Origin: Porphyra umbilicalis
Lineage: Eukaryota; Rhodophyta; Bangiophyceae; Bangiales; Bangiaceae
Length of the DNA: 64,000 bases
Assembly: GCA_002049455.2 (NCBI GenBank)
Contig: KV918894.1
Span: forward strand, 1-64,000
Reading direction: 5' to 3'
Under the pieces are notes generated by a model. The model ran no database searches, was not told where the DNA came from, and saw only the letters and a program-made list of their open reading frames with translations. A program made the position numbers and the translations under genes. This document shows positions 7,204-54,387 of the stretch, one piece after another. The first letter of the stretch is position 1; each line of letters starts with the position of its first letter.

Positions 7204-8425
7204 ATGCCGTCCAAGACCGTCACGCTTCCGACTGGGCACACCTTGGCCGTTAATGGCTTTGGCACTTGGAAGTCCGAGCCTGGAAAGGTCGGTGCGGCGG
7301 TTAAGAAGGCGCTGGAGATTGGCTACCGTCACATTGACTGCGCGGCCATCTACATGAATGAAGCCGAAGTCGGCGCAGTCTTTGCCGAAATGTTTGGCGG
7401 CGACAACCCGGCCGTCAAGCGGGAGGACGTGTGGATCACGTCCAAGGTGTGGACGAGCTGCGGCTCCAAGAAGGAGGTCGTTGCTGCCTGTCGCCAGTCG
7501 CTGTCCGACCTGAAGCTTGACTACTTGGACGAGTACTTGGTGCATTGGCCGGCAAACTGGGAGCACCAGGGGCTCCCCATCACGGAAACGACTATGGGCA
7601 CCGGGCCGGACGGGAAGCTGCGTTGGAGCAAAACTAACACACTGCAGTCCAAGTGGGAGGGGATGGAGGAGTGTCACCGGCTCGGGTTGACCAAGGTGCG
7701 TTTGGTCAGCACACAGTGGTCCGGGTGGGAGACGTGTCTCGTTTACAAACCGCAGCGTGGTGCGGAAGGTGGTGCTCGCGCCGCTGTCAAGAGTGTTGTT
7801 TTTGTACGGATGGTAATTCTAACCCCCAGCCGCGTCTCCTGTGCCATACTTCAGCACCCCTTTCATGCTTGCTTGTGGTCTTGTTGTACTCCTTCGGTGC
7901 TCGCCATCTTTCTACTTTGATCTCGCCAATGGTGTGTGTGTCCTGGTTCCGCACTGTCTTCCCGTCCTCATTCTCCCTTGACAGACAATCGGTGTGTCCA
8001 ACTATTCCGCGCTGCTGCTCATGGACCTGCTGTCCTACGCCAAGATCCCCCCCGCCATCAACCAAATCGAGGCGCACGTCAACAACCAGCGTGCGGAGCT
8101 CCGCTCGGTCTGCACCGACAACAACATCCACGTGACCATGTACTCGGTGCTTGGCAGTGGCAAGGAGGGTCCCCTGCAGGACCCGACCGTCAAGGCCATT
8201 GCCAAGGCACACGGCGTGTCGCCAGGCGCCATTTGCATTGCGTGGGCGCTCTCCACGGGCTGCTCCGTCCTTGCCAAGAGCGTCACGCCGTCACGGGTGG
8301 AGGAGAACTTCAAGGCTGACGAGATCGACCTGACGGCCGACGAGGTCAAGCAGTTGGAGGCACTGGAGCGGGGGCTCCTCGTGTGCAACATGAACGAGTA
8401 CTGGGGCTTCCCGGCGCATGCGTAA
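7018..8425 (+). CDS. Aldo-keto reductase, two exons
   Basis: An NADPH-dependent aldo-keto reductase, which reduces aldehydes or sugars. Exon 1 runs to 7695 and exon 2 from 7985 to the TAA at 8423-8425; the 289 bp intron is GT-AG, phase 0. Counting from the inner ATG at 7204 (MPSKTV), the catalytic tetrad is all present: Asp45 in HIDCA, Tyr50 in AIYMNE, Lys81 in ITSKVW and His114 in YLVHWP. Exon 2 gives KTIGVSNYS and the cofactor-binding region LAKSVTPSRVEENF. The inner-start protein is 310 residues, the normal family length; the upstream ATG 7018 adds 62 residues that look like a targeting sequence. Substrate cannot be told from sequence. It is convergent with the unknown gene ending at 8787 and is the clearest host gene here. 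Confidence 0.92.
7696..7984 (+). other. Intron of the aldo-keto reductase gene
   Basis: The GT at 7696 follows AAG and the AG at 7983-7984 precedes ACAATCGGT. Removing it restores the universally conserved GVSN motif of the family in frame. Confidence 0.88.
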
Positions 8426-10299: not shown

Positions 10300-11240
10300 G
10301 GCCACGGCGCGGGGCGCGTGCGCGTGGCGGGGAAGAACCGGCGGCGCGGCGCGGCGGCGGAGCGGCACCCCCCGTCCCCCGCGCAGGTGCCAGCGGTGTC
10401 AGGCGACGACGGTGACGCGGTCGAGCGCGTGGGCGGGGTGGCAGCAGCAGGGGGAAAAAAAAAAAGGGCGCCGAGGGTGGGGCCCCAAAACAGAGGGCGC
10501 GCGTCGGCCACACGCCCCGCGACGCGCACACGCGCCGCGCTGGCCCAACGGGGCGGGGCGGCCGCCGGCACGGCGACACACAACCGGAAGAGCGCGAGAC
10601 CGCCGCAACGCTGGTACAGCAAAGGCGGCGAGGCGGGCGCGGCTGGGAGATAAAAAAGAAGCGGCGCTTGGGTCGTGGCAAACACCTGGGGGGGGCGGGG
10701 GGATCGACGGGGGAGCGCCGCGCGGCCGGGTCGTGGCAACGGGCGAGCCGACGCGGTGTTGCAAGCGCCGCGCCAGCGAGCGTGACGCGACCAGCGTCCG
10801 GCAGGGGTGCCGGCCCGGCCGGGCCGCGGCGACGTGTGGTCCCCCCAAGGGCGCCAAGTGAGACCCTGCCACTGTGCTGGCGGCGCGTGGGCGGCCCACA
10901 CACGCCCAGTTAAGGTGTCTCTTACGGCTTCGAGCATTACAGACAGCTTCGAAAATAATGTCGCGACGTGGAGAAATCTGAATGGGGCACGGGGTCGCAG
11001 CCGCGACCCCGTAGTTTCGAGGTCTGCGCCACTGTGAGAGGGGTGCGACCCCGTGCGATTGGGAGCAGCTGAGAGGGGTAGCGAATCAATTCGATACCCA
11101 CGTGATCGATTTCAGGCCGTCGCCGTCGCCGCGATTCCATCCCATCCCCTTCCGCGCTGTGATCGTGGTTTCAACGACAAACAGCAGCCTGCCGCGCTTC
11201 GTTCCCCGGCTCTCTTCACGTCTCTCGTATCAACCGCTTC
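10300..11240. other. GC-rich intergenic stretch
   Basis: Open frames on both strands look driven by composition (Ala/Arg/Pro runs). There is an A run at 10456-10465. From about 10900 the composition becomes more balanced. No gene, RNA or clear repeat supported. Confidence 0.4.
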
Positions 11241-16824: not shown

Positions 16825-16956
16825 CAGCCGTTCTCCCAAAAATCCCGCACTCCAACTGGTACAAAACAGTTTCAAATCGGCCTCTGCGGGGTCTTAGAGG
16901 CCGATTTGGAACTCTTTTGCAACTGTTGGAGTGCGGGCTTTTTTGGAGAACGGCTG
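16825..16956. mobile_element. 132 bp fold-back MITE
   Basis: Almost the whole length is one inverted repeat, beginning CAGCCGTTCTCC at both ends, through CCCGCACTCCAAC and a central CAAATCGGCCTC pair. TA flanks each end (16823-16824, 16957-16958). The outer 20 bp match the ends of the 9.85 kb transposon at 34730-44578, so this is a good candidate for a non-autonomous element moved by the same enzyme. Confidence 0.88.
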
Positions 16957-31552: not shown

Positions 31553-34532
31553 TCATTTTTGCCTTACGGATAAGTTATGCCGTTGGCAGTTCTGACGGAC
31601 CTTTTCAGTTGGAAGGTCCTCGACATATTCCCATGTATCCTCCCTTGGTCCATACCCAAACCAGCGGACCTTGAGCATAAGGCGCTTGTGGTCATCATAC
31701 CCTTGTCCGACAAACTGGTCGAAGACAGCCTCCATCGTCTTCTCACTTGAAGACGGGAGGGAGGGTACACGCCATGCCTTCAGGGCGCGTTCCCACGCCG
31801 GGTCACCCTCCAGCGGTTCCGACGCCAGAGTGGCGTGATTACCGTTTATTGTACGGATTCCATCGGTACTTTCGATGGTAAGACGCCGGTCATCAGTCTT
31901 GAGTATCTGATACGGCCCTTTCGTCTCGAAGATGAGTTTACCTCCCTTGTTCTCGTGTGACTTCACGAAAACCCAGTCTCCGACTTGGAGAGATTCTCGC
32001 CGGCTCTTGACTTGCTTGTCAAAGTGCCGTTCATAGCGGGCATGGGCCTTGTCCATTGACTTCTGGACAAGAGGGATCAGCGCATCCAAGCGCTTGCGGA
32101 AGTTCTCGCGCGCTTGGCTCGGTGTCAAGGGAGTTTCCTCTTCACCCGTGCCTTGGGTAAGGCGCTCGATCGCCACCGGGCTGAGTATCCGGGGGCACAC
32201 AAGAGAGAACGGTGCCTCCCCTGTGCTACTATGCACTTGGGAGTTGTAGGCAGGAACCAGTAGGGACACATACCTTGCCCAGGTTACGACATGTTCGCTC
32301 ACATAGTGCCTCAACTGTCGTTCCAAAGTCTTATTAAAGCTTTCCACTGGACCATTTGTCTGTGGGTGGTAAGGCGTGGCATAATTAGTACTTATGCCAA
32401 GCATTTGCAACACGCCCTGGTAAAGTACGGACGCAAATTGCGGTCCGTTATCTGACAAAGTCGAGTCAGGGATGCCATAACTGGCTATCCAAACATCAAT
32501 AAAGGCACTGCGAACATCCAGTGCCGTCACATCTCGAAGGGGGACTACCCGAGGTAACTTCGAGAAGCGGTCACGCATGATTAATAGGTACTCATATCCC
32601 TCTGGAGTTCGAGGGAGAGGACCAAGGAGGTCGATGGCTACTGCCTCGAGGGGTTCCGTAGCCGGGAACAACCTCATAGGGGAGGAGCTTCGGACCTCCA
32701 TCAACCGGTTCTTTGCGCAAGTGCCGCAAGCCGCGACCCAGCCGAACACATCGGCTGCGAGCGAAAGGCCAGTAGCACCTTCGTCTTAGGGTCCGATACA
32801 TCTTGGTTTTCCCCGGGTGCCCACCCAAGGGGGACGAGTGTTCCCTCTTGAGGACGTCGGCCACGAGGGAGCGGGGCACAACCACTTGTTGTGTTCCCTC
32901 TTGTTGGCCATGACGGCAGAGCATGCCGTCACCATTCTCATAGAACCGAGTCTGGTTCATGGTGTTCAGATGCTTCCGGGCCTCTTGGCAGACACTATCG
33001 TCAAGTTGTTCTTTGGCCAACACCGCCATCGAGATGGGGACCTGTTCCTTATTCTCTGGACGGCGGGGGTCCAATACGGCCCCCGACCGCGTCGTCACCC
33101 TGACCACCGGGATGTCTTCGGGGACTGGAGTAGTATGCAGCCCCTCCGTCGGCATGTGGGATAGTGTATCCGCGACGGCATGTTGTCGACCAGGTTTTTA
33201 CTCAAAGTCATTGTCGAACTCGGCCAGTCGTATCCGCCATCGATTCAGGCGGTTGTTGGTACATGTTGTCGTGGTGAGTATCCACTTCAACGCTTTATGG
33301 TCACACCGGACTAAGAACCGGGTGCCCTCGATGTATGGTCGCAGTGAGGTTACTGCCCACACCACACGAAGACCTTCGATTTCGGTCACGGTGGAGTTCC
33401 GCTCAGCAGGTTCTAGTCCCCTACTGAAGTAGCCTACGGGAAGATATGCCCCCGTAGGCTGTTCTTGCAACAGAGCACAACCGAGTTGGTCATAACTCGT
33501 ATCCACATCGATAATATACTTCCCTTCTTTCCTTGGTAGTGCCATGATGGGAGGGTTACACAGTTGTTCGCGTAGTCAATCGAACGCGGCCTGCTCCTCC
33601 ATAGTCGGAGGGCGGAGTTTCTTGGGTAGCGATGTGCTTACCAAGTTGTTCAGGGGCTTCGCGACTTTGGCGAAGTCGGCCGTGAAACGTCGGTATACGT
33701 TACACATACCCAGGAAACTACGCAGTTGCGTCTGCGTCTTTGGGTATATGGCCTTCCTGATAGCTTTCAGGTTTTTCTCATTCACACTGATGCGTCCCTG
33801 TCGTATGACATGACCGAGATACTCCACCTCATGACTAAAGAGGTGGCACTTCTTTGCCTTGAGAGTGACACCGTTCTCGCCCAACAAAGTGAACACCTTC
33901 TCCAAGTGGGAGAGGTGTGACTCCGCATCCGTGGAGTACACAATGATGTCGTCTAAGTAGACGAGGACATACTTCAATTTCACTCCGGCCAGTATCATGT
34001 CCACGGCGCGCTGGAAAGTGGCAGGCGCATTGCAAAGACAAAAGGGGAGACGGGTGCGCTGATATGTCCCCACATGAGTCGTGAAGGACGTCAAGTGCTT
34101 GTCTTCCTCGGCGACTGGGATCTGCCAGTATCACGCGTTACAGTCTAACGTCGAGAAGAACTTGGCGTCTCCCAGGGAATCCAGACAGTCATCCATCCTT
34201 GGGAGAGGATACGTGTCCCGCACCGTTCTATCGTTGAGTTGACGATAATCGATGCAAAAGCGTGTGGAACCATCCGGTTTCGGCACCAAAACAACCGGAC
34301 TGGCCCACTCACTAGTGCTGGGTTCAATCACGTCCAGCTTGAGCATTTTGGTCACCTGCTCGCCGACGAGTTGTCGGGTTCGCGGACCAATGCGGTAGGG
34401 TTGGAGCCGCACGGGTTTGGCGCCCGGCTTCAGTCTCATCCGGTGTTCGGTCGCCTTAATCGTCCCGAGGGACCCGTCCCACAACTCGTGGTGTCGGTCT
34501 TGTTGAGAGGTCAAAAACCAGCTACGCCACAT
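31553..34532 (-). mobile_element. Ty3/gypsy chromovirus pol fossil
   Basis: On the minus strand, in order: reverse transcriptase (VIEPSTSEWASPVVLVPK near 34.3 kb; YVLVYLDDIIVYS near 33.95 kb), RNase H (YIIDVDTSYDQLGCALL near 33.5 kb), the integrase H2C2 finger region (GGHPGKTKMYRTL near 32.8 kb), integrase core (IDLLGPLPRTP) and a C-terminal chromodomain (LKVRWFGYGPREDTWEYV, near 31.65 kb). RT, RNase H, integrase, chromodomain is the Ty3/gypsy chromovirus order. It is broken in at least three places. No matching gag is seen upstream and no long terminal repeats could be paired, so it is also incomplete. Confidence 0.9.
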
Positions 34533-34712: not shown

Positions 34713-34729
34713 CGCAAGCTGGGCCCATA
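34713..34729 (-). mobile_element. Copia fossil, primer-binding-site side
   Basis: AGCTGGGCCCATA, read on the minus strand as TATGGGCCCAGCT, is the same primer-binding site as in the copia at 50.1-53.7 kb, where it directly follows the LTR. Here it is separated from its LTR (44584) by the 9.85 kb insertion. Drosophila copia is known to prime from an internal fragment of initiator Met-tRNA, and this site looks like that type. Confidence 0.75.
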
Positions 34730-35467
34730 CAGCCGTTCTCCAAAAAATCCCTCAGTCACGGAATGCAACAGTCATCGGATCCAACAGTTGAAACTCATAG
34801 AATTTCAAGTTTCTTCAGAGACAGAAAGACAACGTGGCCGATGTTTCAAGGTCACGGTCCCTGCAAGCCTTTGCGGTCCATTTTGTATCCCACAGTGGTC
34901 TCCAGCAAGATGCAGGCGAGGCTGTCATGAGAGACCGACACATTAGTCTCGTGACTGCCGTTTTCTCGTGGAGCCTTGCATGATTCGTCGCCTTGTCGTC
35001 CCATTTAGCAAGACAACAGGGCGCTTTCTGAGAAGCGTTATTGCATCTTAGCATGCGATGTAAGTGTCTTCTCGGACCTTTATTACGGCCAGTGAAGTGA
35101 CAAGCACCGACGGAATTCAGCAGCTAGACGCTCTTGGCGTTGCGAACAGGCTGCGGGCGACGATCTGGGAAAATGTGACCGATTTCACGCGTCCGTCGGC
35201 CGCACGCCACTGGCACGCCCCACACCATCTGGTGGCTGACGACTGAGCTCGGCTGTGCACGCTTCATCTGCCCATCATTCATGTCCAGTCATTTGCGCCC
35301 TAAAGAGGGTCTTGCTCCACGTCTCAATTGGCGCATGATTCGCCGTCCTCTCGTCAATCTATTTCTGTCGACAGATCCGCTCGTCACGTTGCCAATGCGG
35401 AGCCCCCCCCCCCCCCCCCCACCTATCCTCCTTTCTCCTCCGACCCTCGCCCTCCCCGACCAATCGC

Positions 35468-37226
35468 ATGCCCGCCATGTCATCCAGCAGCGACATCCAA
35501 CCAATTTTGACGGCTGCTAGGGAGGCGGCCGGGCTCGCTGCCAGCACGCGTTCGTCATCGTCGAAAGAGGAGGACACCCGGACCGGTTCACCTGATCTGG
35601 CTGCCGGGACCTGTCCCGAGACGGCGGACAAGGGTGGGCATGTCGCCAATCAACCTGACGGTGATGTGGCCGAGGGTGACGCCGCGCCGGCTAACGCTTG
35701 TTCTATTTGCGGCTACCGCCGGCGATTTTCCGACGATGCCCACAACTTTGGGACGTGTGAGGGGAACGTGCGTGAGTGCACGGCGAGCCCGAACGTGCCG
35801 GCTCCGTTTCGGACGCAGGCGTGCACGTGTTCGGCTGCAAGGGTAAAGCGTTGCGCCGTTAGTAAACAGTGAGTTTGAGATGTTCTCCTTCTGTTGTCAT
35901 CGTCGAGAGATCTGTTTGCCGGCCTGCTCGACCTAGCAATATTCTGACCACGAGCTTGATCTATTTTCGTTTCTCTGTGTCTCCGTGGCTTCGTAGTTGC
36001 CATTTGTGTCTGCAAAAGGGCCACCTTCCCCACACTCCTTCGCTGTCAAAGGCGTTTGATCTTTCCTTTACCCCCACAGGCAAGCTCTCGGTTCGCCGGA
36101 AGAAGGGCGTCCAGTGGAACGTGGCATCGATGGTGTGTGCGAAAACTACGGACGCTCAGCTCAAGCAAGTTGCGGCCGCTGCTTTTCGGTCTGCGACGGT
36201 CGCCGCCGATGACGCGCAAGCCTACGTGGCTCGGCGTCGGGACGCTCTACTATCTGACGTCGCCGAGCAGCCAGATGGGGCTCGTGGAGCGATAATGGCT
36301 CGAGCAACGAAGGCGCTATCGGGTCCGAACGCACGAGCCGCAATGGTTCGTAACCGGCTTGGAGCTGTCTACCACTCGTCGTTGGCTACTGGCTTGGCGG
36401 CCGGGATGCCGCGTGACGTGGCGCTGCTTTTCGCCGGAGCGAGCCAAGCAGGCGTCGATTTTGGGTCGCCGTCGAGCGGGGAGGCCCCGAACTCGACAGT
36501 CGCGCGCCGAGCAGTTCGCAAGCGTTTGGCGGAGACTGCGGCGGAGAAGCGGATTGCTCAGGTTGCCAGGATCGATGGCCGGCTCGGCATTGTGGGCGGG
36601 GCCAGCACGTCCAACCGAGTGTGAGTTGTTGTTTAATTTTTTCTGGGCGTGCTCGAGCGTGCTTGCACTGTGCCGGGACGTGCGGTATTCAGCTCAAGTG
36701 TGTGTCCTCGTTTACTTGTGGTGTGACCTGACGTTATAACCCTCCTTTCCGTTGCCAGCGCTCTTTCTATTCTCCCTTTCTTCTGTTTCTTGTATGTGGC
36801 TGAACAATTTGCAGGCGGGCCCTCTACGCCGGAGAGGCACCGTCCCCCCCCCCTCCGATTCCAGAGGCCGCCGGCGCAGTCGGTCCTGCTGCGCCAGGCA
36901 GCACCGAATCGGCAGCCACAGGCCAACGCGACAGCGAGTTTCGGCAGCTGGGCGCGGCTGCTCTGGCCGAGAACCTGGCATCATTTGCGTTCGGACCTGA
37001 GGACGATTTTGAGCGTGCTGCGTTCGTGGAGAAGGTCCGTCGGGGTATGGTTTCCGGATTTCTACGTGGTCATACTGTGTGCGGCTCGACTGTGAGTGCG
37101 GTGGATGTCGTAGTTTTGATTTTGTCTAAGTGGGGCGAGCAAGGCGAGCCTCATCCGGATGTGTCGTCCCTCCCACTGGGACTGCGTGACCTGGTCTTGT
37201 CGTGGGTCACGTTCCATCGCCGTTAG
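35468..37226 (+). CDS. Three-exon gene of unknown function in the 9.85 kb transposon
   Basis: Exons 35468-35868, 35997-36620 and 36815-37226; both introns (128 and 194 bp) begin GTGAGT, end in AG, and are phase 2, and the joined frame is open to the TAG at 37224. That gives 478 residues. The N-terminus is Ser/Glu/Asp-rich, then come Cys pairs suggesting zinc binding: CSICGYRRRF, TQACTCSAAR and, across the first junction, CHLCLQKGH. The middle exon is Ala-rich and helical (RATKALSGPNARAAMVRNR) with basic segments (VRRKKG, RRAVRKRL). After a Pro-rich linker the last exon reads DDFERAAFVEKVRRGMVSGF. No known family. It faces the transposase tail to tail with a 56 bp gap, so it is probably an accessory protein of the element or captured cargo. 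Phase agreement at both introns makes the model firm; the function is unknown. Confidence 0.8.
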
Positions 37227-37282
37227 TGCTTTGCTTTCGTGGCCATCTGATAGACGTTTATTGTATTGTACCATTTGCCCCA

Positions 37283-38368
37283 TTACTCCCGCACGTCAGA
37301 CAGAGATGCAAAGACACCCTCCCACGGCCCACCAGGCCCACACAGCTCTGGAACGTTTCGAACAGCCTCCAACAGGCTGTGCTCAAAGTGAGACGCAAGG
37401 TTTGGGGCAGCCAACTTAGACAATGCAACTGCGTGTAGAAGTGCCTCTGGCACCCCGTCATACGAGTGGTGCGCCGTCTTGAGCTGGTGCGAGAACTCAC
37501 TAAACACCTCCTCAATCGGTTGGAACTCTGGACTATACGGTGGAAGACGAAGACGAAAGATGCCGTTTGCGCGGATGAAGGCATCCGCCTCCGCCGAGTG
37601 GATAGGTGCATTGTCATATAGTAGAACGCACCGGTCTGGCTGCAGCCTCCACGGTAGACCAGGCAAGAACCGGTTCATCGTTGGGAGCTGCCCGTTGAGG
37701 AAGAGCAGCCAATCGTCCGAATTCTGGGACGGAGGGGTGGGGGTGTTGACCGAGTGAAGCACCCCATCCGAGTAGGACACGGCCATCATCGTTGAAGTCC
37801 TTAGCATCGCCCTCCGGTCACGCAACTGGCACTCGTAGCGCGCACCACGCAGCCACCGACCGCGTCGTCGCCGTAAGTCCCCGCCGTCCTTGTGGGTCTC
37901 GTCGGCCGACACGAGGCGCCGAAGGGGGATTGACAAAAATAGCCTGGCGAATGCGTCCCGCCTTGCTTGATCACGTTCTCGACACATACGGTAGAGCTGC
38001 TTGTATGAGTAGCCCGCAGCCCGCAGCACGCGGTCGAGGGTGGCAATTGAGCACTTGTAGGAGTCGCGATAACCAGGCAAAGTCGATAAAAAAATAAACA
38101 CGTCCTTCATTTCACCGAACAGCTGCTCCGGGTCCGACAAGATGACGGCACTCAGGGCGCGGACGAAGTTCTCGTCGAACCAAACGTTATCCGCATGACG
38201 ATTTCGGATGGCCGGGTCCGGCCACCACTCGCCGGTGTCCTTGTACGCCTTGACCCAAGCAGCCGCCGTGCTTCGGTCGCACATCAAGCGCCTGGCCGCC
38301 TCCGAGATGCTCACGTCTTCGAACAAGACCCACGAGATGACCAACATCCGTGCCGTGTCGTCGAACAT
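37283..38368 (-). CDS. IS630/Tc1/mariner-superfamily transposase
   Basis: A single uninterrupted 361-residue ORF, the normal length for the superfamily. The N-terminus has a helix-turn-helix (ISEAARRLMCDRSTAAAWVK). The catalytic DDE set is visible: Asp in RLVSADETHKDGGD, Asp in VLLYDNAPIHSAEAD, and Glu in YSPEFQPIEEVFSEF, with 33 residues between the second Asp and the Glu. Catalysis by this family targets TA, in line with the TA flanks of the surrounding 9.85 kb element. All catalytic residues are present and no break is seen, so it may be functional. The start at 38368 (MFDDTARM) fits the length of the family. It lies tail to tail with the three-exon gene and is the likely source of movement for the 132 bp fold-back element as well. 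Confidence 0.92.
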   Translation of the reverse strand: MFDDTARMLVISWVLFEDVSISEAARRLMCDRSTAAAWVKAYKDTGEWWPDPAIRNRHADNVWFDENFVRALSAVILSDPEQLFGEMKDVFIFLSTLPGYRDSYKCSIATLDRVLRAAGYSYKQLYRMCRERDQARRDAFARLFLSIPLRRLVSADETHKDGGDLRRRRGRWLRGARYECQLRDRRAMLRTSTMMAVSYSDGVLHSVNTPTPPSQNSDDWLLFLNGQLPTMNRFLPGLPWRLQPDRCVLLYDNAPIHSAEADAFIRANGIFRLRLPPYSPEFQPIEEVFSEFSHQLKTAHHSYDGVPEALLHAVALSKLAAPNLASHFEHSLLEAVRNVPELCGPGGPWEGVFASLSDVRE

Positions 38369-39083
38369 GATGAAGAAGAGGGTGAGCAGGTTGCCGAACG
38401 TCCAATGCGGGACACAGGGCGTCGTCAGAGGTTCTTCACTGGACCAGAGTGCCTGCTAATTAGGGACCTACGTCTAGAGTAGCCCCTCTTGTTTTATGGG
38501 AGAACAAGATGACATATTTTTATGGCGATGTTTCTCTGGACTCTCTTGGCGTTAGATGACGCAGAAGCAGTGGACTGGCTTGTACTCCTCGACCATTCAG
38601 ACCAGAGTTTCTGAGCGATCATGTACTGCCACGAAAGCTGTTCGATGGAGTTCGCATGGAATGAATGATCGCCCTCATCGCCTCCGAAGCCCTGTACGTC
38701 GGGCATGGTCGAGAGAACCAGCCATGCAGTCCGCTGCTCTGACTCATGCGGTCTTCAACCCTTGCTCTGCTATGAGAACAAGGTGATCTGAGCGCGATGA
38801 ACTGCCAAGGAACAAATGGTCAAGTCGAAAGACCAGTAAAGGAAGGACAGTAAGCACTTGGCCGACGAAAGTGACGGTCTTGATTCGGACTGAGAGATAC
38901 ATACAAGCAGTTGGAAGAATGGGTACCGAGAATGAAGAAGTGAAGACACAAGACGAGAGGGTGCTCAACCACCTCGACCATTCGCCGTCACATCCTACGA
39001 GCTCCGGCTGTCATCAAGCACCGGACATAGAGGCGCTTCCTCGAACTGGGCGCAGAACACTCCATGCCGAGGTTCGGTCAGAG
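38369..39083. other. No gene seen
   Basis: Region upstream of the transposase, possibly its promoter. AATTAGGGACCTACG and AT-rich patches occur near 38455-38530, but no TATA box can be assigned with confidence. Confidence 0.35.
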
Positions 39084-41327
39084 CTACGCCGCACAGTACG
39101 GGCTGATGCTTCGTCTTCGAGCAGAAAAGAAAAGATAGAAAAACGAAAAACGCTGTGGCTCTTTAGCGGGAAAGGCGTGGCCACACACGGTGGGGGGGGG
39201 CGCCACCGTGCAGGCTCTAGTCGTCTCGTTGGCGCCCGCAGGGTCGACGGAGGCAGGTGCGGGCGATTCAAGACGGGCGGTTGCGAGGGGCGGGGGCATG
39301 CGACCCCTGGCGTGGGGGGGTAGGCTCGCCGCGCGGACGCTGCTCGGCGTGGCGACGGAGGCCGTCGCGGTGCGGTTGGGGTCTAACCGCCGCGTTGGGG
39401 AAGCGGACGTCATGGCGCCTCCCAACCTCCCGCCGTCGGTGCCTGTCAGCGGCGGCGGGGTAGAAGCCCCGCCGACCGGGGCTGCCACCACCCATGCCGG
39501 CGCCGCGGAAGCGGCAGGGCTGTAGTGTGCTGGCCAGGCGACGCGGCGGGCGCTGCGGCGGCGTACTGGCGCGCGGCGTCGGCTGGGGCTCTCGGCATTG
39601 CCCTGACGCCAAGAGTCGACGCGAGTGTGCGGACGTCCGTGCGGAGGGCGGCGACGATTGGCGCGGCGTCATTGTTTGCGAGCAGGGGGTTGGCGGGGGG
39701 CCCCGAGTGGACGTGTACTGACGTCGACCGCGCGGCGAAGCTGTTGTGGCCGTCGTAAGGGGCCGAGGCCGACGCGGTGGACGCAACTTCAGGCGGCACC
39801 ACATGAGGCATAGGTGGGGGAGACGATAACGACAAGGACTATGAAGACCTGGCGGCTGCCATTGACCGTGTCCTCACGACCTGGCGGCTGCCATCGACCT
39901 TGTCCTCACGACCGCCGAGCTAGCCACAGCGCGGATGACGGCCGCCACAATCGGCGCGGTGAAGCCGGGCGGCACCGCGTGCCCCGACGACGCGCGTTCG
40001 GTGACGGTCACGACGACCGCCGCCCGCGGTCTTCGGAACGCCTCGACCGCCACTGCCGCGGTGGCAGCAGGGACCCCCCCCGCCGTCACGGCCGCCCGCC
40101 GGCGAGCGGCAGCGGCGGCGGCCGCCGCCGCCGCGTCGCCCCCCGCCGCTGTCGCCCCCCCCGCCACAGACTGGGCCGCGACGGAGGCGTCGGGGACGCT
40201 GTTGCCGAGCCAATCGTCTATGATGTCGCGTCAGACCTCGGATGGCGGGCTGTGGGGGGAGCCGCCGACGCCACGGCGGCTGGCCAGCCGCCCAACCGCC
40301 CCGCGTCACAGGCGATGTCGGAGCAGCCGCCACGGCTTGACCGGCGGCGGCCGCCTGTCTCTTCCCCCCCCGGGCGGCGGTAGCAGGGGGGAGCCGGCCG
40401 CTGCGCGTCGGGCATCGCGGCCGCCGCCGACGCCGCGACGGAGGGAAGCTCTTCGCCGCGGGCCACATTTCGGGCGTCAGCCAGGCGGCACGCGGACCGG
40501 GCAGCGCGGTCGGCTCGCCACCGGGACCTCGAAGAGGGTCAAGGACGGCTTGCGGACGGTGTTCAGGGGGAGTTGTCGAGGGGGTGGGTCACGGTTTGGC
40601 TGTTTCCTCTGCCCGCCAAAGAGGGTAGGGGGGTCGACTTTCCCAGGTCCGCCGCAGCCGGAATGGCGTGGAGTTCAACCGGCGGAGAGAGTGGGCCGGC
40701 GGCGGCGGGCACCGCAGCCGCCGCCGCCACCGCTGTGCCCCCCCCCCCGCCCATTCCACTCTCCTAGCAGCCGCACGTGCCGGGTTCCCTTTCCCTTCCG
40801 CAGGCGTCGGTGCTCGGCCTCGACCCCGCTCACCGAGCCTTCCTGTGTGAGGCGCTCCCTGGTCTGGCGACCGCCCGCCTCCGACCCTTCCTGCGTTGCT
40901 ACCGCCACCCGTGCTACCACTGACGCTCACCGCCACCCGCTGGGCGTGAAGAGAGCGGAAACGTCGTTGGCCTGGCCGCCACGCTGGTCGCCGCGGGGTC
41001 CGCGTGCCGCATGTTGTACTTTATCGGCGCGGTGCCGGTAGTGGACGAGCTGCCATAGGTGCGCAGCCAGGGGATACAGCGGCGGCGCCCGCCGCGACGG
41101 CGGTAGAAGCCACAGAGGCGGTGGATGCGGCTGACGCCGACGCCGAAACCAATGTTCATGGCACCAGAGAAGACGGTGTAGGCGGCGGCGCCCGCCGAGG
41201 CAATGACATCCGCGGCGCGGCAGAGGGCGCGCGCGCCGCGGGTGGCGGCGGCGGCGGCAGCGGCGACGGCGGCCTCGCTGGCAGACGGGGCGGCGGGTGA
41301 GGAGTGGCGGACATCGTGCTCCCGCAC
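39084..41327 (-). CDS. GC-rich unknown ORFs in the 9.85 kb transposon
   Basis: The minus strand holds a chain of open frames from MREHDVRHSSPAAPS (41327) down to 39084. Normal-looking peptides are TRGARALCRAADVIASAGAAAYTVF, shown here as two parts CRAADVIASAGAA and AAYTVFSGAMNIGFGV, and further down YDGHNSFAARSTSVHVHS and VAALRTDVRTLASTLGV. The frame changes at G/C runs, as in the unknown gene at 8787-10293. Long Ala runs also open other frames, so the exact model is not secure and no family is recognised. If real, it is additional cargo of the transposon. Confidence 0.3.
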
Positions 41328-41449
41328 CGTGCCGTCGCTGTGGCTGACATGAGCGGTGGAGGGTGGGAAGAAGTGCGTAGCTGGCGAGGGGGACGAACGT
41401 GCTGGCGCGTAACGGGATATGTGTCATTTTCTTGCTCTTCTTCCCACAA

Positions 41450-42887
41450 GCGTACGCCCGAGGCTGTTAGTTTCGCTTGGTGTCTTTGTTGATATGTAGT
41501 TTCGAAAGTATACGAAGCTCATGCACACACACACAGCGAGCTTCCATGCACGGGCTTCATTCCAGGTCCACGTTGTTTTAATGTCGTACGTTACACATTA
41601 TCGTCCATGGTGGAAATCTGCGTCGCCTTGGGTTAGGAACTCGGGCCGGTGAGTCTGCGCGACGTGCGATTCCTGCAGTTGACGTGTGAGGAGAACGGGT
41701 CTTCAGTGCTCCCGAACACTGAACCTCTGGTGCGGGCATTGAAATAGCCAACGAGTGGGCTTTGCTCTTCGTCTTTGTCTGTCGCGGGATTGCTTGGGCG
41801 GCCTACGCTCTTGGAGCCGTCATCACCAGATTACCGATGGTCCATCACGGCGGAGGCGAAAAGCTTAGGGTCTGGTTGGGGTCGCCGCCATCACCCCTTC
41901 ACGGCTGTTGGACGGATGGTGCGCACATCGCAGGCTTTCTCTTCGGGAGCCCCCGCCCCGCCCGGTCCCCGTGACAGCCGACTGGGGGCGGCACCACATG
42001 TAGTCGCTGGCGACGCGAGCGACGAGCCCCGTCGCTCAAACCGCTGACCCATGAGCAGTTGCCGCCACGGTGCGGGGTGGAATGAGTTCGGCGCGTGCGC
42101 AAAACGGATAGTGCGGGTGGGGGTGGGAAAGGCGACGGCAGTGTCGGTGCACGAGGTCTCGGTCGCCAGATCACGCGTCAGAGCAGGACCAGTGCAGGGA
42201 CAGACGCTGCGCTGTCGCTACTACTCAGGCGAGGGTGTGTACTCCACGAGCACACGCACGTGCCGGACAATGCCATGTATGCAGCTGTGATGTGCGCGAA
42301 GATAGGAGGCTCCGGCACGGATTGTTGCCCGTGAGGTGATCGCAAATGGGCGGAAGCAACTGGCAACAAAAAACCTGCCATAAATTCAATTGAGACGTCA
42401 TATTTATGATAAATGTGAAAACACACAAGCCAGGACTTGTCTACACAGCACCGGAGTTGTAGAATTTTACTTGACAAATCACTCTGAAAGTGACCCCCGT
42501 TGTCGTTCTTTTGCTTTGTGGACCAAAACGTTGACTAAGCCGGTCGTAAACTTAGTGCCGCGCTTTTAGGAGCCGTTGAGTCGTTGGGGACAGGCACCAG
42601 CGACCAAGTCGATACATCGCGGGCACTCCGTTTCTCGAAGAAGCGCATGTATTACTCACGCACTCAAGATGTCAGCTCGGTATTGGCCTTTGCGTGTGCC
42701 CTGCCATCATGACTCGAGGTGTGAAAAAGAGCGTGTTTAATAGACATAGCTGTACGTGTCGCAAATGTAAAGAGGAGCAATGAGAAAAGCAAAAGGAAGG
42801 ACATGACAGAATGGCGCCCCCCTCTTCTGCGCTCCTCTCGAACGGAGCATCAACAGCAGGGACCTTGACAAGCGTCGATCCGCACGT
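41450..42887. other. No gene seen
   Basis: Mixed composition, short open frames only. A CA-repeat patch lies at 41525-41535. Confidence 0.4.
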
Positions 42888-43565
42888 CTAGACGTTCAGC
42901 ACGTCCACCATCCAGCGCATCGCGGACTCCTCCGAATGAGGCATCTGAATGGGCTGAACAAAAGCCCAACCACAGAGCAAACGTCCCCGACCTGTTCCTA
43001 CAATCATATCAAAGAGCACGAAAGCAACAGAAAATGTCCCAGATATCATAGTCACGCCCACAATGTCAGTGTCAATATTAAAGCACACCTCACAGCGGGA
43101 CCGTGCAGGTACACGTCGCATTCGGACGAACATGGCGAGGGCGTGGGGGGTGGCAGCAGAGGTGTGGCAATCAAAGAGAGCAAGGAAAGGTCGGGTGATG
43201 GAGTGTTCAACGAGCCATGCGCGACAGCAGGGGGGGGACAAAGCCTCAGAACATTCACGGCTGCAACCGTACTCATGCATCTCGTAATGAAAAAACATAC
43301 ACAACGACACGTGCTCATCATGCCGATGATCCCAGTGCCCGCCCACATACCTCATGCAACTGTGCAAGTGGTGCAACAGATCGGAAGCACATACCAAGAG
43401 CGCGGGTGGCGTGCCGTGGGACACCACTGCGTTCATCAGGGGCAATGCGGGACGAGGCGAGGAAGACGCGACAACGACGTCCACGACGGGGACAGCCGTC
43501 GGGAGGAAGGAGATCGTCGATGGCTCCACCGTCCCCAGCAGGGTGGCGGTGTTCCGATCGGACAC
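42888..43565 (-). CDS. Unknown 225-residue ORF in the 9.85 kb transposon
   Basis: Open from ATG 43565 (MSDRNTATLLGTVEPST) to the stop at 42888. It is rich in His, Met and Cys (HHLHSCMRYVGGHWDHRHDEH, split as HHLHSCMRYVGG and HWDHRHDEH), with alternating hydrophobic segments near the C-terminus (GVTMISGTFSVAFVLFDMIV). No family recognised. An overlapping plus-strand frame of similar length exists, so one of the two is chance; the minus one has the more protein-like composition. It could be cargo of the transposon. Confidence 0.35.
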   Translation of the reverse strand: MSDRNTATLLGTVEPSTISFLPTAVPVVDVVVASSSPRPALPLMNAVVSHGTPPALLVCASDLLHHLHSCMRYVGGHWDHRHDEHVSLCMFFHYEMHEYGCSRECSEALSPPCCRAWLVEHSITRPFLALFDCHTSAATPHALAMFVRMRRVPARSRCEVCFNIDTDIVGVTMISGTFSVAFVLFDMIVGTGRGRLLCGWAFVQPIQMPHSEESAMRWMVDVLNV

Positions 43566-44548
43566 ACGGCACCGTTGACTGATCTGCTTTTCTATGAATC
43601 AAAGCGGGCCACACAAGTTTGCAGCAGCGCAACACATAATTAGAATTCGATATCGGAAAAGAAAGGTTTGGAGCCAGTCTGTCACAATTATGAGGTATCG
43701 ACAGGTCTTTTGATCGCTGGGTTGCGAAACGAAATTAGTCCGTCGATCACACCGGACTTCTCAGTGCTTCATCGCTTTTGCCTCTTATTCCATTCTAACT
43801 AGTAGCAGTGACCACGTTAGATACTCTGCATACTGGGAATGAGAGCAGTGCTTCTGAGGCCGTCGCGCACGACGCGACCCGTCCTCACTGCAAGGGCATA
43901 TGGAAGTGGCCACAGGAAAAATCCGCCGCATCCCGGACGATCACGCAAAGCGGTTCCTCAGGCGTGAGCGCGCACCGCGGCTCCCTGAGGCCATTCGTAC
44001 AAAATGGGACAGGCGCGCCACACTGGGCCAACAAAAGTGCTGCCGTGGTCCATCCTTTCGTGAGAGCACTCAGCCCGTCTCACAGACGCGTCTGGGAGGG
44101 TAACTTGAGGAGAACTGTTGATGGCATCTCTTGCCGAAGATACTCATTTCTGGGCGCTCATTGGTCCGAAGTATTCTAGCATGGGCGCCGTAGCCCGGCG
44201 GCCAATGAACGCTGACTCACCTTGGCACATGTGCGGCAGAGTTTCTGACCCACTGCGACAGTCCTGTGTCCTGTTGCCCCAGACGCACTCAAGCTGACCC
44301 TAACAGCGGATGCAGGGGCCACGTCAGCATTCAGGGTCTGAATGGGCCAAAACACCTGCAGTGAGGCAGAGAAAAAGGACCGTGTGTCTCGTGAGGGCTT
44401 CCCAAGACAGCCTCTCACTGCTCATGCAGCGTGGTGGTCCACAGCCAGCGTGAACCAGATCATGAAAATGAGCTGCCTCGCACTGAAACCAACTTGAAAA
44501 CCGTCGACTTTGGTCGAAGTGTAACTGTTGAAGGACATGTTAACATGT
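43566..44548. other. No gene seen, right subterminal part of the transposon
   Basis: Short open frames without motif. CAACAGTT, also found inside the left end, occurs on the minus strand just before the right terminal repeat. Confidence 0.4.
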
Positions 44549-44583
44549 GGGACTGAGGGATTTTTTGGAGAACGACTGTAACC

Positions 44584-49927: not shown

Positions 49928-52900
49928 ATGGCGCCGCTTTTGCCCGAGGGGCACCTGCCCGCAGACGCTGCTATTGACCTTGACGCGATCTCTCGTGGTC
50001 TCTTTTCCGGCGCGACAAGTACTAAGTATGATTCCTATATCAATGAGAAGCGGGGGTGGGTTGAGTTTTGTGAGGCGCGGGACTTGGACCCGCTTGCCGT
50101 GTGTGAAGTGAACGGCAGTTGGGTGGATGCGTTGGTTTACTCGGGGCGGGTCTGCGGCACAAGGCCAGCAGCCTCTTAACCCCCAGACGACCCGCTCCCA
50201 GCGCCCTCCAGGAACATTCCCACTCTCACGCCGTCGCAGAGCGCACGGCGCACCTCCCGAGGGGGAGCTCACACCCAGAGGGCGGAGCCTCTAACCACCC
50301 CACAAGTCCCGACCATCCTGCCGAGCTCAACCCGCTAATCTCCCGGAGCTGAGCCCCTAATGGGTCGCCCAAAAACACAAATACAATCAAGTACATGTCA
50401 AGTACACGCCACAAATACATGACAGGAGGTGTCACAAAGTCCCATCATACTTCGGACTTGTCCCGAAATACATGTGGGCTTGCATGCAATACGTTGCTTC
50501 TTACACGGAAATACCGCCGGACTTGTCGCTGCCAATGCACCTTGCCATGTGGAGCTGCTGAGCCATGCTCAACACTCCCCCCAGGTCCACATGGGCGCAG
50601 GGTGTGCGGGCCACGTCCCGATGTCGCCATCGGGAAAACGTGACCGCGGCAACAGTCGAACTCCGGGTGCCTGCCTCACAGGCAGGAAACCCAGGTGCAG
50701 TTGGTATCGATACCAACCAAAAAATCACCCACAACAGATGCCCCCGTACGAAGGCCCATGTGAAAGAGGACGTCGAGCTGACCGAAATGATTGGACAGCT
50801 CCGTCAGAGTCCATCAGACGGCGGAGACATGACCCGCCGCCCGGCCCGGCCGCGAAGAACAGTAGCGCTACTATCCATCGACTTGGTTCGTCTCATCCTC
50901 GAGGATGCGGTAGGCCTTGCCACCGACCGTGTAGCCAACAAAGCGGCCGACGTCGGTCCTTGGCTCCAGCTTGCGTTGCTGCTTCTTGGGTTTGAGCGCC
51001 CACGCCCGGCTCCCCAAAACGCGGAATCCCGCGACGTTGGGGCGTCGACTCGTTAAGGCGTCCAGCGGTGTCACGTCCAGCCCCGCCTTGGGGGACCGGT
51101 TGAGCACATGGACGACAGAGGCCAAAGCCTCAGCCCATAGGTCTTCCTCCGCTTCGGAATCGAGAAGAGCAGCACGCACGCGCTCCATCAGCGTGCGGTT
51201 AACCCGCTCCGATTTGCCGTTCTGATGTGACTTGTACGGCGCTGTCATCTCCGACGTGATGCTCTTGTCCTCGTACCATGCCTTGAGGTCGTTGGTGACG
51301 TACTCCTTGGCACCGTCATGACGAACGCGCTTGACCTTGACACCCGTCAGCGTCTCAAGCTGCTTGATACGCGTCTTGAGAACATGCGGTGCCATCCCTT
51401 TCGTCTTGATAGGCGTTGCCGTGATGAACCCCGTGGAGTCCTCCAGCGCCGTCATAAAGGAGATGGAACCACCCAGCGACTCAGTGAGTGTGCCACCGAT
51501 GTCGGTGTGCACAAGTTCGCACTTGGTCGTCGCTGTAGACGAGCGGGGGCTCGGCGCCTGCACCATCTTGCCGTCCACACACGGCACACACACAGTGCCA
51601 ATAATGCGCTTGGCGTCTGCCACTGACGACGGCATGCCGTCGACCATTGTGGCCGCCCTCTTGAGGTTCTCTAACCCCAAGTGGTTGAAACGGCGGTGCA
51701 ATAGCTCCGCCTCCCCAGCTATACGCGTGGATGCCGCGTTAGCGGACGCCTGGACCGGCGTCACCTTGAGCACATACTGCTCCAGGTCGTTCACCTTGCC
51801 GACCACCGACGCCTTGTCGAGCACTCCGCTCGAGCGAACAGCATCCCCGTCGCTAAGGATGTAGCAGGCGTTGTCAACAAACACCACCGCACCTCGATTG
51901 CGGTCGACCGCTCGAACCGTCGGCAGGTTGCTAGTCAGGTCCGGAACGAGCATAGCCTCCTCGAGTACCATGCGCGTCTTGGTGTTCCCTTTGCCAACGT
52001 CCACGGAGACGTGGCCGTGCCCCTTGATGGGCACCTTGTCGCCGTTGGCCAAGGTGACCTCGGCCCCGCTTCCCGCCGTCCGGATGGTGAAGCCCTTATC
52101 CCCGGCGGCCATGTGGTTGGTTGCGCCAGAGTCGAGCACCCAGGTTGATATCCCGCGTGTACTCCCGTGAGCCTTGCTGCTCCCGGAATTGCCGGTGAAA
52201 GCAGTGTAGGCCAGAGCGGCACCCGCGCTGGGCCCGCCGCCGTGGCCGCCTTCACGACCACCACCGCCGGGCTTGCCCTTGCCCTTGGCCTCGTCCGCCT
52301 TCTTCTTGTAGCAGTCGCGCTGCATGTGCCCTTTCTTGTTGCAGTAGAAGCACACGACCGACTTCTTGTCAAACGACTTCTTGTGCGCCGCTGCCGCAAA
52401 GGCTTGTGACTTGACACTGCCAGAAGGCTTGGACGCGGCGACGGTAATGCTCCGCTGCTCCACTTGCAGCAGCTTAGCCGTCACGTCCGACATGAAGAGC
52501 TTGGTGTCCTTGTTCTCCAAGACCGTCCTGAGCATCCCGTACGCTGATGGGAGCCCCGACAAGACACGCAGTGCGAGCGCGTTGTCGTCCACCGGGTTAC
52601 CGAGCGTGGCGAGCTCGTCCCGGATCATCTTGGCGCGCGACGTGAACTTGATGATGTTCTCGTCGCCGCCCTTCTTCAGGCTGCTCAGCTCGTCCATGAG
52701 CCGCAGCAGCTGCGCGTTGTCACGCGCCTCGAGCGTGACCTTGAGCGCGTCCCACGCCTCCTTGGCCCTGTCCACCGACGTGACTGTGTTGAGATGCACG
52801 GGCTTGACCGACATCTGGACGGTCGCCAGCGCCGCCTTGTTCATGGCGTCCCACGCTTCGCCCACCGGGTCGGACTTCTTGTCGTCCGACGCAGAAGCCG

Positions 52901-54387
52901 GGCGGTCCGTCACGACCGCCGCCCATAGCTTCTCCTTCTTGAGCTGCGCACGCTGGTACGCCGCCCACACCTTGTAGTCGTCGTCCAGCTGCGCGAACCG
53001 CGGGCCGCCAAAGCGGCCGTGGTCTGACATGTTGACGACCTCGGCGCCGCACAGCGCCGCACTGACGACGTAGGGAGCAGAGAACGCCCGCCCGACGCCG
53101 GAACACACCGCGACCCCAGCAACGTCGTCTCGCCAGCGACCGCAGGGAAGACGACAGTTACCACCAGCGACAGCTGGGCCCATAACCTGTGACGTGAGCG
53201 GTAGTTGGGTGAATGCGTTGGTTTACTCGGGGCGGGTCTGCGGCACAAGGCCAGCAGCCTCTTAACCCCCAGACGACCCGCTCCCAGCGCCCTCCAGGAA
53301 ACATCCCCACTCTCACGCCGTCGCAGGGCGCACGGCGCACCTCCCGAGGGGGAGCTCACACCCAGAGGGCAGAGCCTCTAACCACCCCACAAGTCCCGAC
53401 CATCCCGCCGAGCTCAACCCGTAAATCTCCCGGAGCTGAGCCCCTAATGGGTCGCCCAAAACATAAATACAATCAAGTATGTGTCAAAATACACACCACA
53501 AGTACATGACAGGAGGTGTCACAAAGTCCCATCATACTTCGGACTTGTCCCGAAATAGATGTGGGCTTGCTTGCAATACATTGCTACTTACCCGGAAATA
53601 CCGCCGGACTTGTCGCTGCCAATGCACCTCGCCATGTGGAGCTGCTGAGCCATGCTCAACACCGTGAGCGCGGAGACGGGTAGGGACGTGGCCCGGTTCT
53701 TCCACTGGAGGACAGACTCCCTGCTGAAGGGGAATTCGATGGGCGAGCAGCTCCGTGAGGCGATGCGGGCTCACTTTGCGCCGACGCGTGGCCTTTCTAG
53801 CTGGTCTGTTATCACTTCGGATGTCGAGAAGATTTCCCCCACTTTTTCTTGTAACCCTGCCCCCTCCGACGACATGACGGCCATGTACAAGGGGCATGCC
53901 ATTACCAGGACGAGGCTCGGAGAGCTGGAGGTGCGTCGCGTGGACCCGATTGAACCTTTCCACCTTTTGCCCTGCTGGTCGAAGCACTTTGCCGGGCGCA
54001 CGGTTGAGGACATTGACACTCCGATGTTGATGGCATACTCCTCAACGTTGCTGTGCGCCAACCTCCTGCTCCGCTATGATGAACTCGTGATGCTACGGTA
54101 CGTTGTTTTGTCTGTCGTTTCCGGCTGTTGTGAAGTCGTACTTGAAACGTGGATCCACCGGTGAGCCGACTGTCGGGACGCCCTGGGCGCGGTGTGCAGC
54201 GCCAATGACTCGATTTTTTCCGTATGTTTCGATGGATCGCTTCGGTCCCCTCTTTCTCAGTACGGAGCACATGGGTATGAGCACGAATGGTATCAAGGTG
54301 AGCATCAACATGGCGACTAAGAACTCACTCAAGCGCCGTGTGTACGTCTGCCAGCCGTGGCCAGGTCCCCTTGGTTCCGACCCGAGG
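49928..54387 (+). pseudogene. Tyrosine-recombinase-like gene split by a copia insertion
   Basis: The first piece (49928-50101) starts MAPLLPEGHLPADA and reads DSYINEKRGWVEFCEARDLD, resembling the N-terminal helical (core-binding) domain of tyrosine recombinases. The second piece lies beyond the copia element (53667 on) and reads ARFFHWRTDSLL, then LLCANLLLRYDELVML near 54050-54095, where the Arg fits the first catalytic Arg. A likely intron (GTACGT at 54100 to CAG before 54263) leads to NGIKVSINMATKNSLKRRVY, which fits the strand and catalytic Lys region. Another donor (GTACGTTG) follows GSDP at 54387. His-x-x-Arg and Tyr motifs were not found. The family could be Crypton-like or the recombinase of another element type. 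The copia insertion has disabled it. Confidence 0.6.
50102..53661 (-). mobile_element. Ty1/copia element with both LTRs and target duplication
   Basis: Fossil LTR element in minus orientation. LTRs lie at 50102-50574 and 53188-53661, begin TGTTGAGCATGG and end CA on the minus strand, and differ at about two dozen positions by hand comparison, so the insertion is not very recent. CCGTG is duplicated just outside (50097-50101, 53662-53666). The primer site TATGGGCCCAGCT follows the upstream LTR. The body holds one long ORF (53030-50871) with UBN2-type gag, a zinc knuckle (CFYCNKKGHMQRDC), protease (WVLDSGATNHMA), a pre-integrase finger (LLHRRFNHLGLENL) and the integrase core. Reverse transcriptase and RNase H are absent, so the element is incomplete and could move only with help. 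It lies in the recombinase-like gene. Confidence 0.95.

What the first reader, a model, noticed from the sequence alone, without database searches (positions are those of the whole stretch)
34730..44578. A 9.85 kb mariner-type transposon carrying a spliced gene and other cargo
Terminal repeats, TA on both sides, and a host site that closes perfectly when the element is taken out show this is one insertion. It holds an unbroken IS630/Tc1/mariner-type transposase plus a three-exon gene and further ORFs. Tc1/mariner elements are normally short and single-gene. A large cargo-bearing member in an alga-like genome would be a new kind of element. The intact transposase suggests it may be recent.
Basis: partly seen in the sequence, partly recalled or inferred. 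Interest (0 to 1): 0.9.

Follow-up and report, generated by a model that had tools for sequence, protein, structure and literature searches.

The report
Long two-gene mariner-type jumping gene
A 9.85 kb jumping gene of the IS630/Tc1/mariner type, one of a many-copy family in this unnamed eukaryotic genome, pairs its transposase with a second, spliced gene of unknown kind that was kept by selection, while the rest of its length shows no convincing genes.

Summary
34730-44578 is one TA-flanked insertion with 28-bp inverted ends (27/28). The same host site occurs uninterrupted elsewhere. Nine other elements of 9.5-15.5 kb with matching ends were read in full, in two subfamilies. All ten carry, near the left end, the same convergent pair: an IS630-like DD33E transposase and a three-exon companion gene of 475 aa (though the companion is broken in 6 of the 10). 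The companion lies tail-to-tail beside 45 of 50 transposase places at 53% identity or more (47 with a second query) and was detected beside 0 of 59 more distant ones. Between subfamilies both genes show purifying selection (dN/dS 0.08-0.11 and 0.16). So the spliced gene is a resident transposon gene, not captured cargo. The other ~6 kb is subfamily-specific and shows no convincing constrained reading frame, though that test has low power. Multi-gene Tc1/mariner elements are known from ciliates (TBE, Tec, Sardine, Anchois), so this is a new, long, two-gene variant. The companion has no named homologue, no Pfam match at cut-off and no fold match; its function is inferred.

The parts
34728..34729 (.). 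TA target-site copy, left
34730..34757 (+). left terminal inverted repeat (28 bp)
   Evidence: 27/28 with the right end; shared by family copies
35477..35868 (+). companion gene exon 1 (ATG at 35477 is kept in most copies aligned; the upstream ATG 35468 is not); Cys/His-rich, putative zinc-binding segment
35869..35996 (+). companion intron 1 (GTGAGT...TAG)
   Evidence: diverges in the C111-type subfamily while the flanking exons align
35997..36620 (+). companion gene exon 2
36621..36814 (+). companion intron 2 (GTGAGT...CAG)
36815..37226 (+). companion gene exon 3, stop TAG; total product 475 aa
   Evidence: 475 aa also in C111 and C217
37283..38368 (-). IS630/Tc1/mariner-type transposase, 361 aa, DD33E, convergent with the companion (56 bp between the two)
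38480..44560 (.). right part of the element: no frame with convincing coding constraint; subfamily-specific
39200..41480 (.). G+C-rich module (about 71-75%), distantly similar (about 71-77% in blocks) to sequences elsewhere (C383, C75, C268) but not detectably to the G+C-rich stretch of the sister subfamily
43166..43458 (.). ~290-bp unit present once here, tandemly repeated in C218 (3) and C155 (5)
44081..44442 (.). right subterminal stretch, parts of which are shared by both subfamilies (72-87% in short blocks)
44551..44578 (-). right terminal inverted repeat (28 bp)
44579..44580 (.). TA target-site copy, right

Best explanation
This is one copy of a two-gene DNA transposon lineage of the IS630/Tc1/mariner superfamily. 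Shown: it lies between two TA copies in a repeat that exists uninterrupted, with one TA, elsewhere; its 28-bp ends and its convergent pair of genes (DD33E transposase and a 475-aa spliced companion) recur across the family; both genes changed mainly at synonymous sites while the two subfamilies diverged. Inferred from the superfamily: the transposase binds the ends, cuts the element out and pastes it at TA. Inferred from linkage, selection and a conserved Cys/His cluster: the companion is a nucleic-acid-binding helper of transposition or its regulator, serving the element rather than the host. The remaining ~6 kb is most likely tolerated, replaceable DNA (repeat-like modules, ~290-bp tandem units), not a set of cargo genes.
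For: Ends, TA and uninterrupted sites. Nine other paired elements with matching ends: five (C59, C218, C178, C155, C48) align over essentially the whole length at 93.4-96.5% in the same order, apart from indels, and four (C111, C202, C217, C237) share the ends, the gene pair at 74-79% DNA identity and parts of the right subterminal region. Coordinates point to four more near-complete A copies (C394, C72, C19, C12), not read in full, the last two with a broken transposase, and to one more B-type pair of ends 12.3 kb apart on C209. The transposase frame is without a stop in 9 of the 10 paired elements (C155 has one). Companion tail-to-tail within 4 kb of the transposase in 45 of 50 places at 53% identity or more, 0 of 59 at 35-42%; with a diverged companion query 47 of 50. 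dN/dS between subfamilies: transposase 0.075-0.107 (four B copies), companion 0.155-0.156 (two B copies). In public metagenome proteins, 6 of 60 companion-piece hits have exactly the same longest-contig length as one of 89 transposase hits, against 0.32 on average (maximum 3) at 592 shifted offsets. C111 and C217: 11,050 of 11,084 identical, no indels, different flanks.
Against: No activity was tested. The companion is free of stops and frameshifts in only 4 of the 10 paired elements (C134, C111, C217, and by counts C218) and broken in 6. Among close copies pN/pS is 0.40-0.65 for the transposase and 0.62-0.72 for the companion's exons, so many copies decay. The companion's role is not shown: no Pfam match at cut-off, AlphaFold models of exon 2 and exon 3 of low confidence (mean pLDDT 65 and 69, pTM 0.39 and 0.59), no PDB fold match at E 0.001. 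Three of 50 transposase places have no detected companion, and 9 of 57 companion rows entered had no transposase within 4 kb. A diverged companion beside the distant transposases could be missed. Right-part frames overlap the real exons in pN/pS (four of 26 at 0.56-0.70), and two right-part windows (from 39980 and 43280) show a three-base bias in substitutions at p < 0.001, besides three windows in the gene pair; so a fast-evolving or multi-exon gene there is not excluded.
Confidence: 0.83

Rival explanations
1. A cargo-carrying mariner that captured host genes: the spliced gene and further ORFs are passengers of host origin.
For: The element is far longer than typical Tc1 (about 1.3 kb, PMC7325037); the G+C-rich module 39.2-41.48 kb resembles sequences elsewhere in the genome; the frame 42891-43598 (-) is free of stops in 15 of 27 rows, the window's own included.
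Against: The companion is linked to the transposase in 45-47 of 50 places, down to 53-59% transposase identity, and 48 of 57 companion rows entered lie beside such a transposase. The frame 42891-43598 falls to 37% aa identity with 5 stops in C554 and 70% with 5 stops in C364, the most diverged copies. No Pfam domain in the right-part ORFs scanned.
Confidence: 0.09
2. A composite or nested structure: a short transposase-only mariner inside an unrelated long repeat.
For: Nesting occurs in the family: C237 holds a 2.34-kb TA-flanked element, and an end of another element adjoins an A-type right part on C131.
Against: No end sequence inside this element within 8 mismatches; five other copies share the whole length and order.
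Confidence: 0.03
3. A virus-related or giant-element relative (Polinton, Teratorn or Starship-like) that uses a mariner transposase.
For: Size and multi-gene content.
Against: No viral or other mobile-element domain besides the transposase in the element's scanned frames; no relative of the transposase confirmed in the viral contigs, a scan sensitive only to close relatives.
Confidence: 0.02

Closest known systems
Ciliate TBE elements (Oxytricha)
   Different: Three ORFs and ~80-bp ends; the companion here showed no named homologue or Pfam match (no direct comparison with TBE proteins was made); 9.5-15.5 kb here, with ~6 kb that looks non-genic
Paramecium Sardine, Thon, Anchois, Tennessee
   Same: IS630-Tc1 type transposase with further ORFs; Anchois has short ends like this element (PMC3464196, passages seen)
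   Different: 3.6 kb (Anchois) to 6.7 kb (Sardine); Sardine and Thon have long palindromic ends and a tyrosine recombinase; no such domain found in the frames scanned here
Euplotes Tec elements
   Same: Tc1/mariner transposase with extra ORFs (PMC7325037, PMC3464196, passages seen)
   Different: ~700-bp ends and a site-specific recombinase
Ectocarpus TcMar-2_Ec32 and its MITE TcMar-N1_Ec32
   Same: algal Tc1/mariner family with an autonomous element and abundant short non-autonomous copies (PMC12477816, passages seen)
   Different: 4.4 kb; no companion gene mentioned in the passages seen
Bacterial IS630
   Same: transposase matches the NCBIfam IS630 model, E 8e-25
   Different: 87.9 bits, below the model's cut-off of 100; eukaryotic, with a spliced partner gene

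Membership tests
IS630-Tc1-mariner superfamily | DDE transposase of the DDE_3 type with N-terminal helix-turn-helix | tested here: met
   PF13358 E 3e-11 and PF13518 E 2e-7, both above Pfam's cut-off
IS630-Tc1-mariner superfamily | TA target-site duplication and short inverted ends | tested here: met
   TA on both sides in 7 of 10 paired elements, on one side in 3
[quoted passage not shown]
   33 residues between D252 and E286; residues assigned from the aligned motifs, the Sleeping Beauty alignment over 246-297 being at E 0.47 only
IS630 (NCBIfam NF033545) | score above the curated cut-off | tested here: not met
   87.9 bits vs 100
Ciliate TBE/Tec/Sardine group | extra ORFs homologous to their 22-kD, 57-kD or recombinase proteins | tested here: inconclusive
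   companion has no Pfam match at cut-off and no named database homologue; no direct comparison with ciliate proteins
Cargo-bearing giant transposon | captured, intact host-type genes inside the element | tested here: not met
   companion is a lineage gene; no convincing constraint in right-part ORFs, at low power

The most novel reading that the evidence does not exclude
An obligate two-protein Tc1/mariner system: a DD33E transposase that works only with an orphan zinc-binding partner, which may let the lineage mobilise units of 10-15 kb where Tc1/mariner elements are usually one to a few kb.
Probability: 0.35. Interest if true: 0.72.

Novelty: new variant of a known kind. Interest (0 to 1): 0.5.

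Why it matters
Tc1/mariner elements are the textbook single-gene transposons. A lineage distinct in its partner gene from the described ciliate families, in which a spliced, selected second gene stays beside the transposase in elements of 10-15 kb, offers a clear test of whether some mariners need a partner protein and whether such a partner relaxes their size limit (a review says transposition efficacy drops over 6 kb of cargo; PMC6431247, passage seen). In the searches made, the companion family turned up only in this genome and in metagenome proteins without an organism name.

Tried and rejected
Captured cargo: rejected for the spliced gene on linkage and selection. Right-part genes: ORF-by-ORF test over five close copies, the same in the sister subfamily with two copies, a three-base-bias scan and a whole-genome protein search with the best-looking ORF; no convincing gene, low power. 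The first companion dN/dS (0.195) used a frame that slipped (390 of 475 codons) and that script then stopped with an error; redone. In one search exons 2 and 3 were tried in all three frames; only frame f1 is the coding one, and its one stop per copy in exon 3 is the terminal stop. In one search the script modelled the companion in five of nine other copies (C111, C217 intact; C202, C237, C48 broken) and missed four; for those four I use the counts. The end scan was incomplete (it missed the plus-strand end at 16825, found); I repeated it position by position for the ten elements. Viral relatives: one viral-contig scan, two pattern matches, none confirmed. Companion structure: two AlphaFold jobs of low confidence and two fold searches without a match. 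Companion as a full-length protein: nothing at E 0.001 among the 7,996 candidates scored; its exon-2 alignment found 60 proteins among 7,997 scored. In one search, six of the 115 transposase rows were left out because they are second fragments of the same broken gene, and 57 of the 141 companion rows were entered (one or two exon rows per place). Host identity was not determined. Papers: nine searches ran (two returned nothing); no description of this lineage was seen in the listings or passages, but the library lacks most subscription journals.
Full report
WHAT IS THERE. The 28-bp inverted ends at 34730-34757 and 44551-44578 agree at 27 of 28 bases and are each bordered by TA. Joining the flanks with a single TA gives a sequence that exists uninterrupted in the same genome. 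The search gave 41 matches, two of them the window's own halves; ten cross the junction with at least 40 bp on both sides, and four cover 210-214 of the 214 bases at 84-93% identity. The host site lies beside a frame (34131-34532, -) that reads like a Ty3/gypsy reverse transcriptase by eye, without a Pfam match, and 2 kb from an integrase frame with a chromodomain-like end; that it is an LTR-type repeat is inferred. The window belongs to an unnamed 83.8-Mb, 665-contig genome; its identity was not established.

A FAMILY. The right end with up to 3 mismatches occurs 62 times, with 0 hits for the reversed control. Ten paired elements, the window's included, were read in full. Subfamily A: C134 (this one, 9,849 bp), C59 9,801, C218 10,394, C48 9,524, C155 12,137, C178 9,795. 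The five others align to the window copy at 93.4-96.5% in the same order, with indels (for example, 1.7 kb inserted and about 0.5 kb missing in C155). Subfamily B: C111 11,084, C202 11,502, C217 11,084, C237 15,498. They share with A the ends, the left gene pair (74-79% DNA identity) and parts of the right subterminal region; no other DNA similarity was found by blastn. Flanking TA is intact on both sides in seven of ten; C178 has CA, C202 has GA and C48 has AA on one side. Apart from C237, which holds a nested 2.34-kb element, none of the ten has a further end-like sequence inside within 8 mismatches. Coordinates indicate four more near-complete A copies, C394, C72, C19 and C12, the last two with a broken transposase, and a B-type pair of ends 12.3 kb apart on C209. 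C111 and C217 are identical at 11,050 of 11,084 positions without indels and have different flanks, so this family has moved recently. The window copy is older: its closest fully read relatives, C59 and C218, are 96.5% and 96.4% identical.

THE GENE PAIR. The transposase (38368-37283, -, 361 aa) has DDE_3 and HTH_28 and fits the NCBIfam IS630 model at E 8e-25, though at 87.9 bits it is under that model's cut-off of 100. The only solved relative found by sequence, at E 0.47, is Sleeping Beauty. With D252 and E286 as catalytic residues it is DD33E. Its frame has no stop in 9 of the 10 paired elements (C155 has one). The companion runs towards it on the other strand. Comparison with subfamily B fixes three exons, 35477-35868, 35997-36620 and 36815-37226: exons align, introns diverge, and GT-AG borders are kept. 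The product has 475 aa in C134, C111 and C217; C218 has no stop or frameshift in its exons by count; in the other six paired elements (C59, C178, C155, C48, C202, C237) it is broken. Mainly helical structure is predicted, with low confidence. Its first exon and the start of the second hold a Cys/His cluster whose exon-1 part (C-x2-C, H, C, C, C-x-C, C) is conserved in a copy on C131 whose transposase is only 68% identical; zinc binding is inferred from that.

LINKAGE AND SELECTION. Of 109 transposase places (115 rows less six second fragments), 50 are at least 53% identical to the query and 59 are at 35-42%. The companion lies tail-to-tail within 4 kb in 45 of 50 and was detected in 0 of 59. 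A diverged companion as query adds two (C147, C6), making 47 of 50; within 6 kb of one distant transposase (C29) it finds a row at E 0.038 and a row that lies beside another, close-type transposase. A companion too diverged to detect in the distant group is not excluded. Of 57 companion rows entered, nine had no transposase within 4 kb. Between subfamilies A and B, dN/dS is 0.075-0.107 for the transposase and 0.155-0.156 for the companion, at dS near 1. Among close copies it is 0.40-0.65 for the transposase and pN/pS is 0.62-0.72 for companion exons, as expected when many copies decay after insertion. In the public protein collection the transposase has 89 hits; three carry an organism name, all distant fish proteins. 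The companion's exon 2 has 60 hits, none with an organism name. Six companion hits share an exact longest-contig length with a transposase hit, against a mean of 0.32 and a maximum of 3 at shifted offsets, which suggests, indirectly, that the pair is linked there too.

THE REMAINING 6 kb. The 26 frames of at least 100 aa right of the transposase give pN/pS 0.56-1.75 over five close copies; 24 have a stop or frameshift in at least one copy, and the two that have none score 1.08 and 1.14. The lowest, 39087-39668 (-), has a frameshift against all five. Since the real exons and the transposase score 0.55-0.72 in the same test and are broken in some copies, its power is low. A three-base-bias scan gave p < 0.001 in three windows of the gene pair and in two of the right part, from 39980 and 43280. 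The longest plausible frame (42891-43598, -) is stop-free in 15 of 27 rows, but in the most diverged copies it drops to 37% amino-acid identity with five stops (C554) and 70% with five stops (C364), where the DNA is about 73% and 84% identical. In the sister subfamily right-part frames mostly score near 1 with wide scatter, and the known genes there score 0.2-0.8, so power is low too. The G+C-rich module of A (about 39.2-41.48 kb) is about 71-77% similar in blocks to a sequence present at C383 and C75 (97% to each other) and to sequence near a distant transposase at C268, and not detectably to the G+C-rich stretch of B. A ~290-bp unit (43166-43458) is present three times in C218 and five times in C155. 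This looks like replaceable, repeat-like filler.

RELATION TO KNOWN ELEMENTS. Tc1 elements are about 1.3 kb with one ORF, and plant mariners 2-6 kb (PMC7325037, passages seen). Multi-gene Tc1/mariner elements are known from ciliates: TBE with three ORFs including a zinc-finger/kinase protein, in a paper whose title reports genome-wide purifying selection (PMC4724952, passages seen); Tec; Sardine at about 6.7 kb with up to four ORFs; Anchois at 3.6 kb with three ORFs (PMC3464196, passages seen). A review of giant eukaryotic transposons has no occurrence of 'mariner' in its main text (PMC6431247, term search). So the organisation 'mariner plus partner genes' is known; this lineage differs in its orphan spliced partner, DD33E transposase, length and apparently non-genic bulk. 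Nine searches for a description of it found none, in a library that lacks most subscription journals.

MECHANISM AND VERDICT. Cut-and-paste by the transposase at the ends, with insertion at TA, is inferred from the superfamily and the clean closure. The companion is most likely a DNA-binding partner or regulator of transposition; linkage, selection and the Cys/His cluster speak for it, nothing tested it. The finding is real, the coordinates exact, the 'cargo' reading mostly wrong, and the more interesting reading is a long two-gene mariner lineage.

Noticed in passing
window 16825-16956: A 132-bp TA-flanked hairpin element (MITE) whose ends match the long element's ends at about 25 of 28. A relaxed end pattern occurs 421 times in the genome (0 in control); among the roughly 100 listed places, 14 pairs lie 135-171 bp apart, so a large MITE family shares nearly the same ends.
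   Followed up: partly
G000:C237 63702-66042 (L056 3803-6143): A 2.34-kb TA-flanked element with related ends nested inside the 15.5-kb copy, with similar frames on both strands; no transposase-like frame recognised by eye, not scanned against a library.
   Followed up: partly
L057 6805-6833 (G000:C131): An end-like sequence directly abuts the right third of an A-type element, on a contig with a 68%-type transposase; suggests that one element inserted into another.
   Followed up: partly
window 43166-43458: A ~290-bp unit varies in copy number between element copies (1 here, 3 in C218, 5 in C155).
   Followed up: no
G000, 59 places listed: A second, multi-copy group of transposases, many with open frames, at 35-42% identity and without a detected companion; whether these are short single-gene elements was not determined.
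   Followed up: partly
window 31553-34532 and 50871-53222 (-): An integrase frame with a chromodomain-like end and a frame that reads like a reverse transcriptase by eye; and a copia-type gag-integrase polyprotein.
   Followed up: no
window 7258-7695 (+): Aldo/keto reductase gene fragment (PF00248, E 2e-21), the clearest host-type gene among the eight long frames scanned.
   Followed up: no
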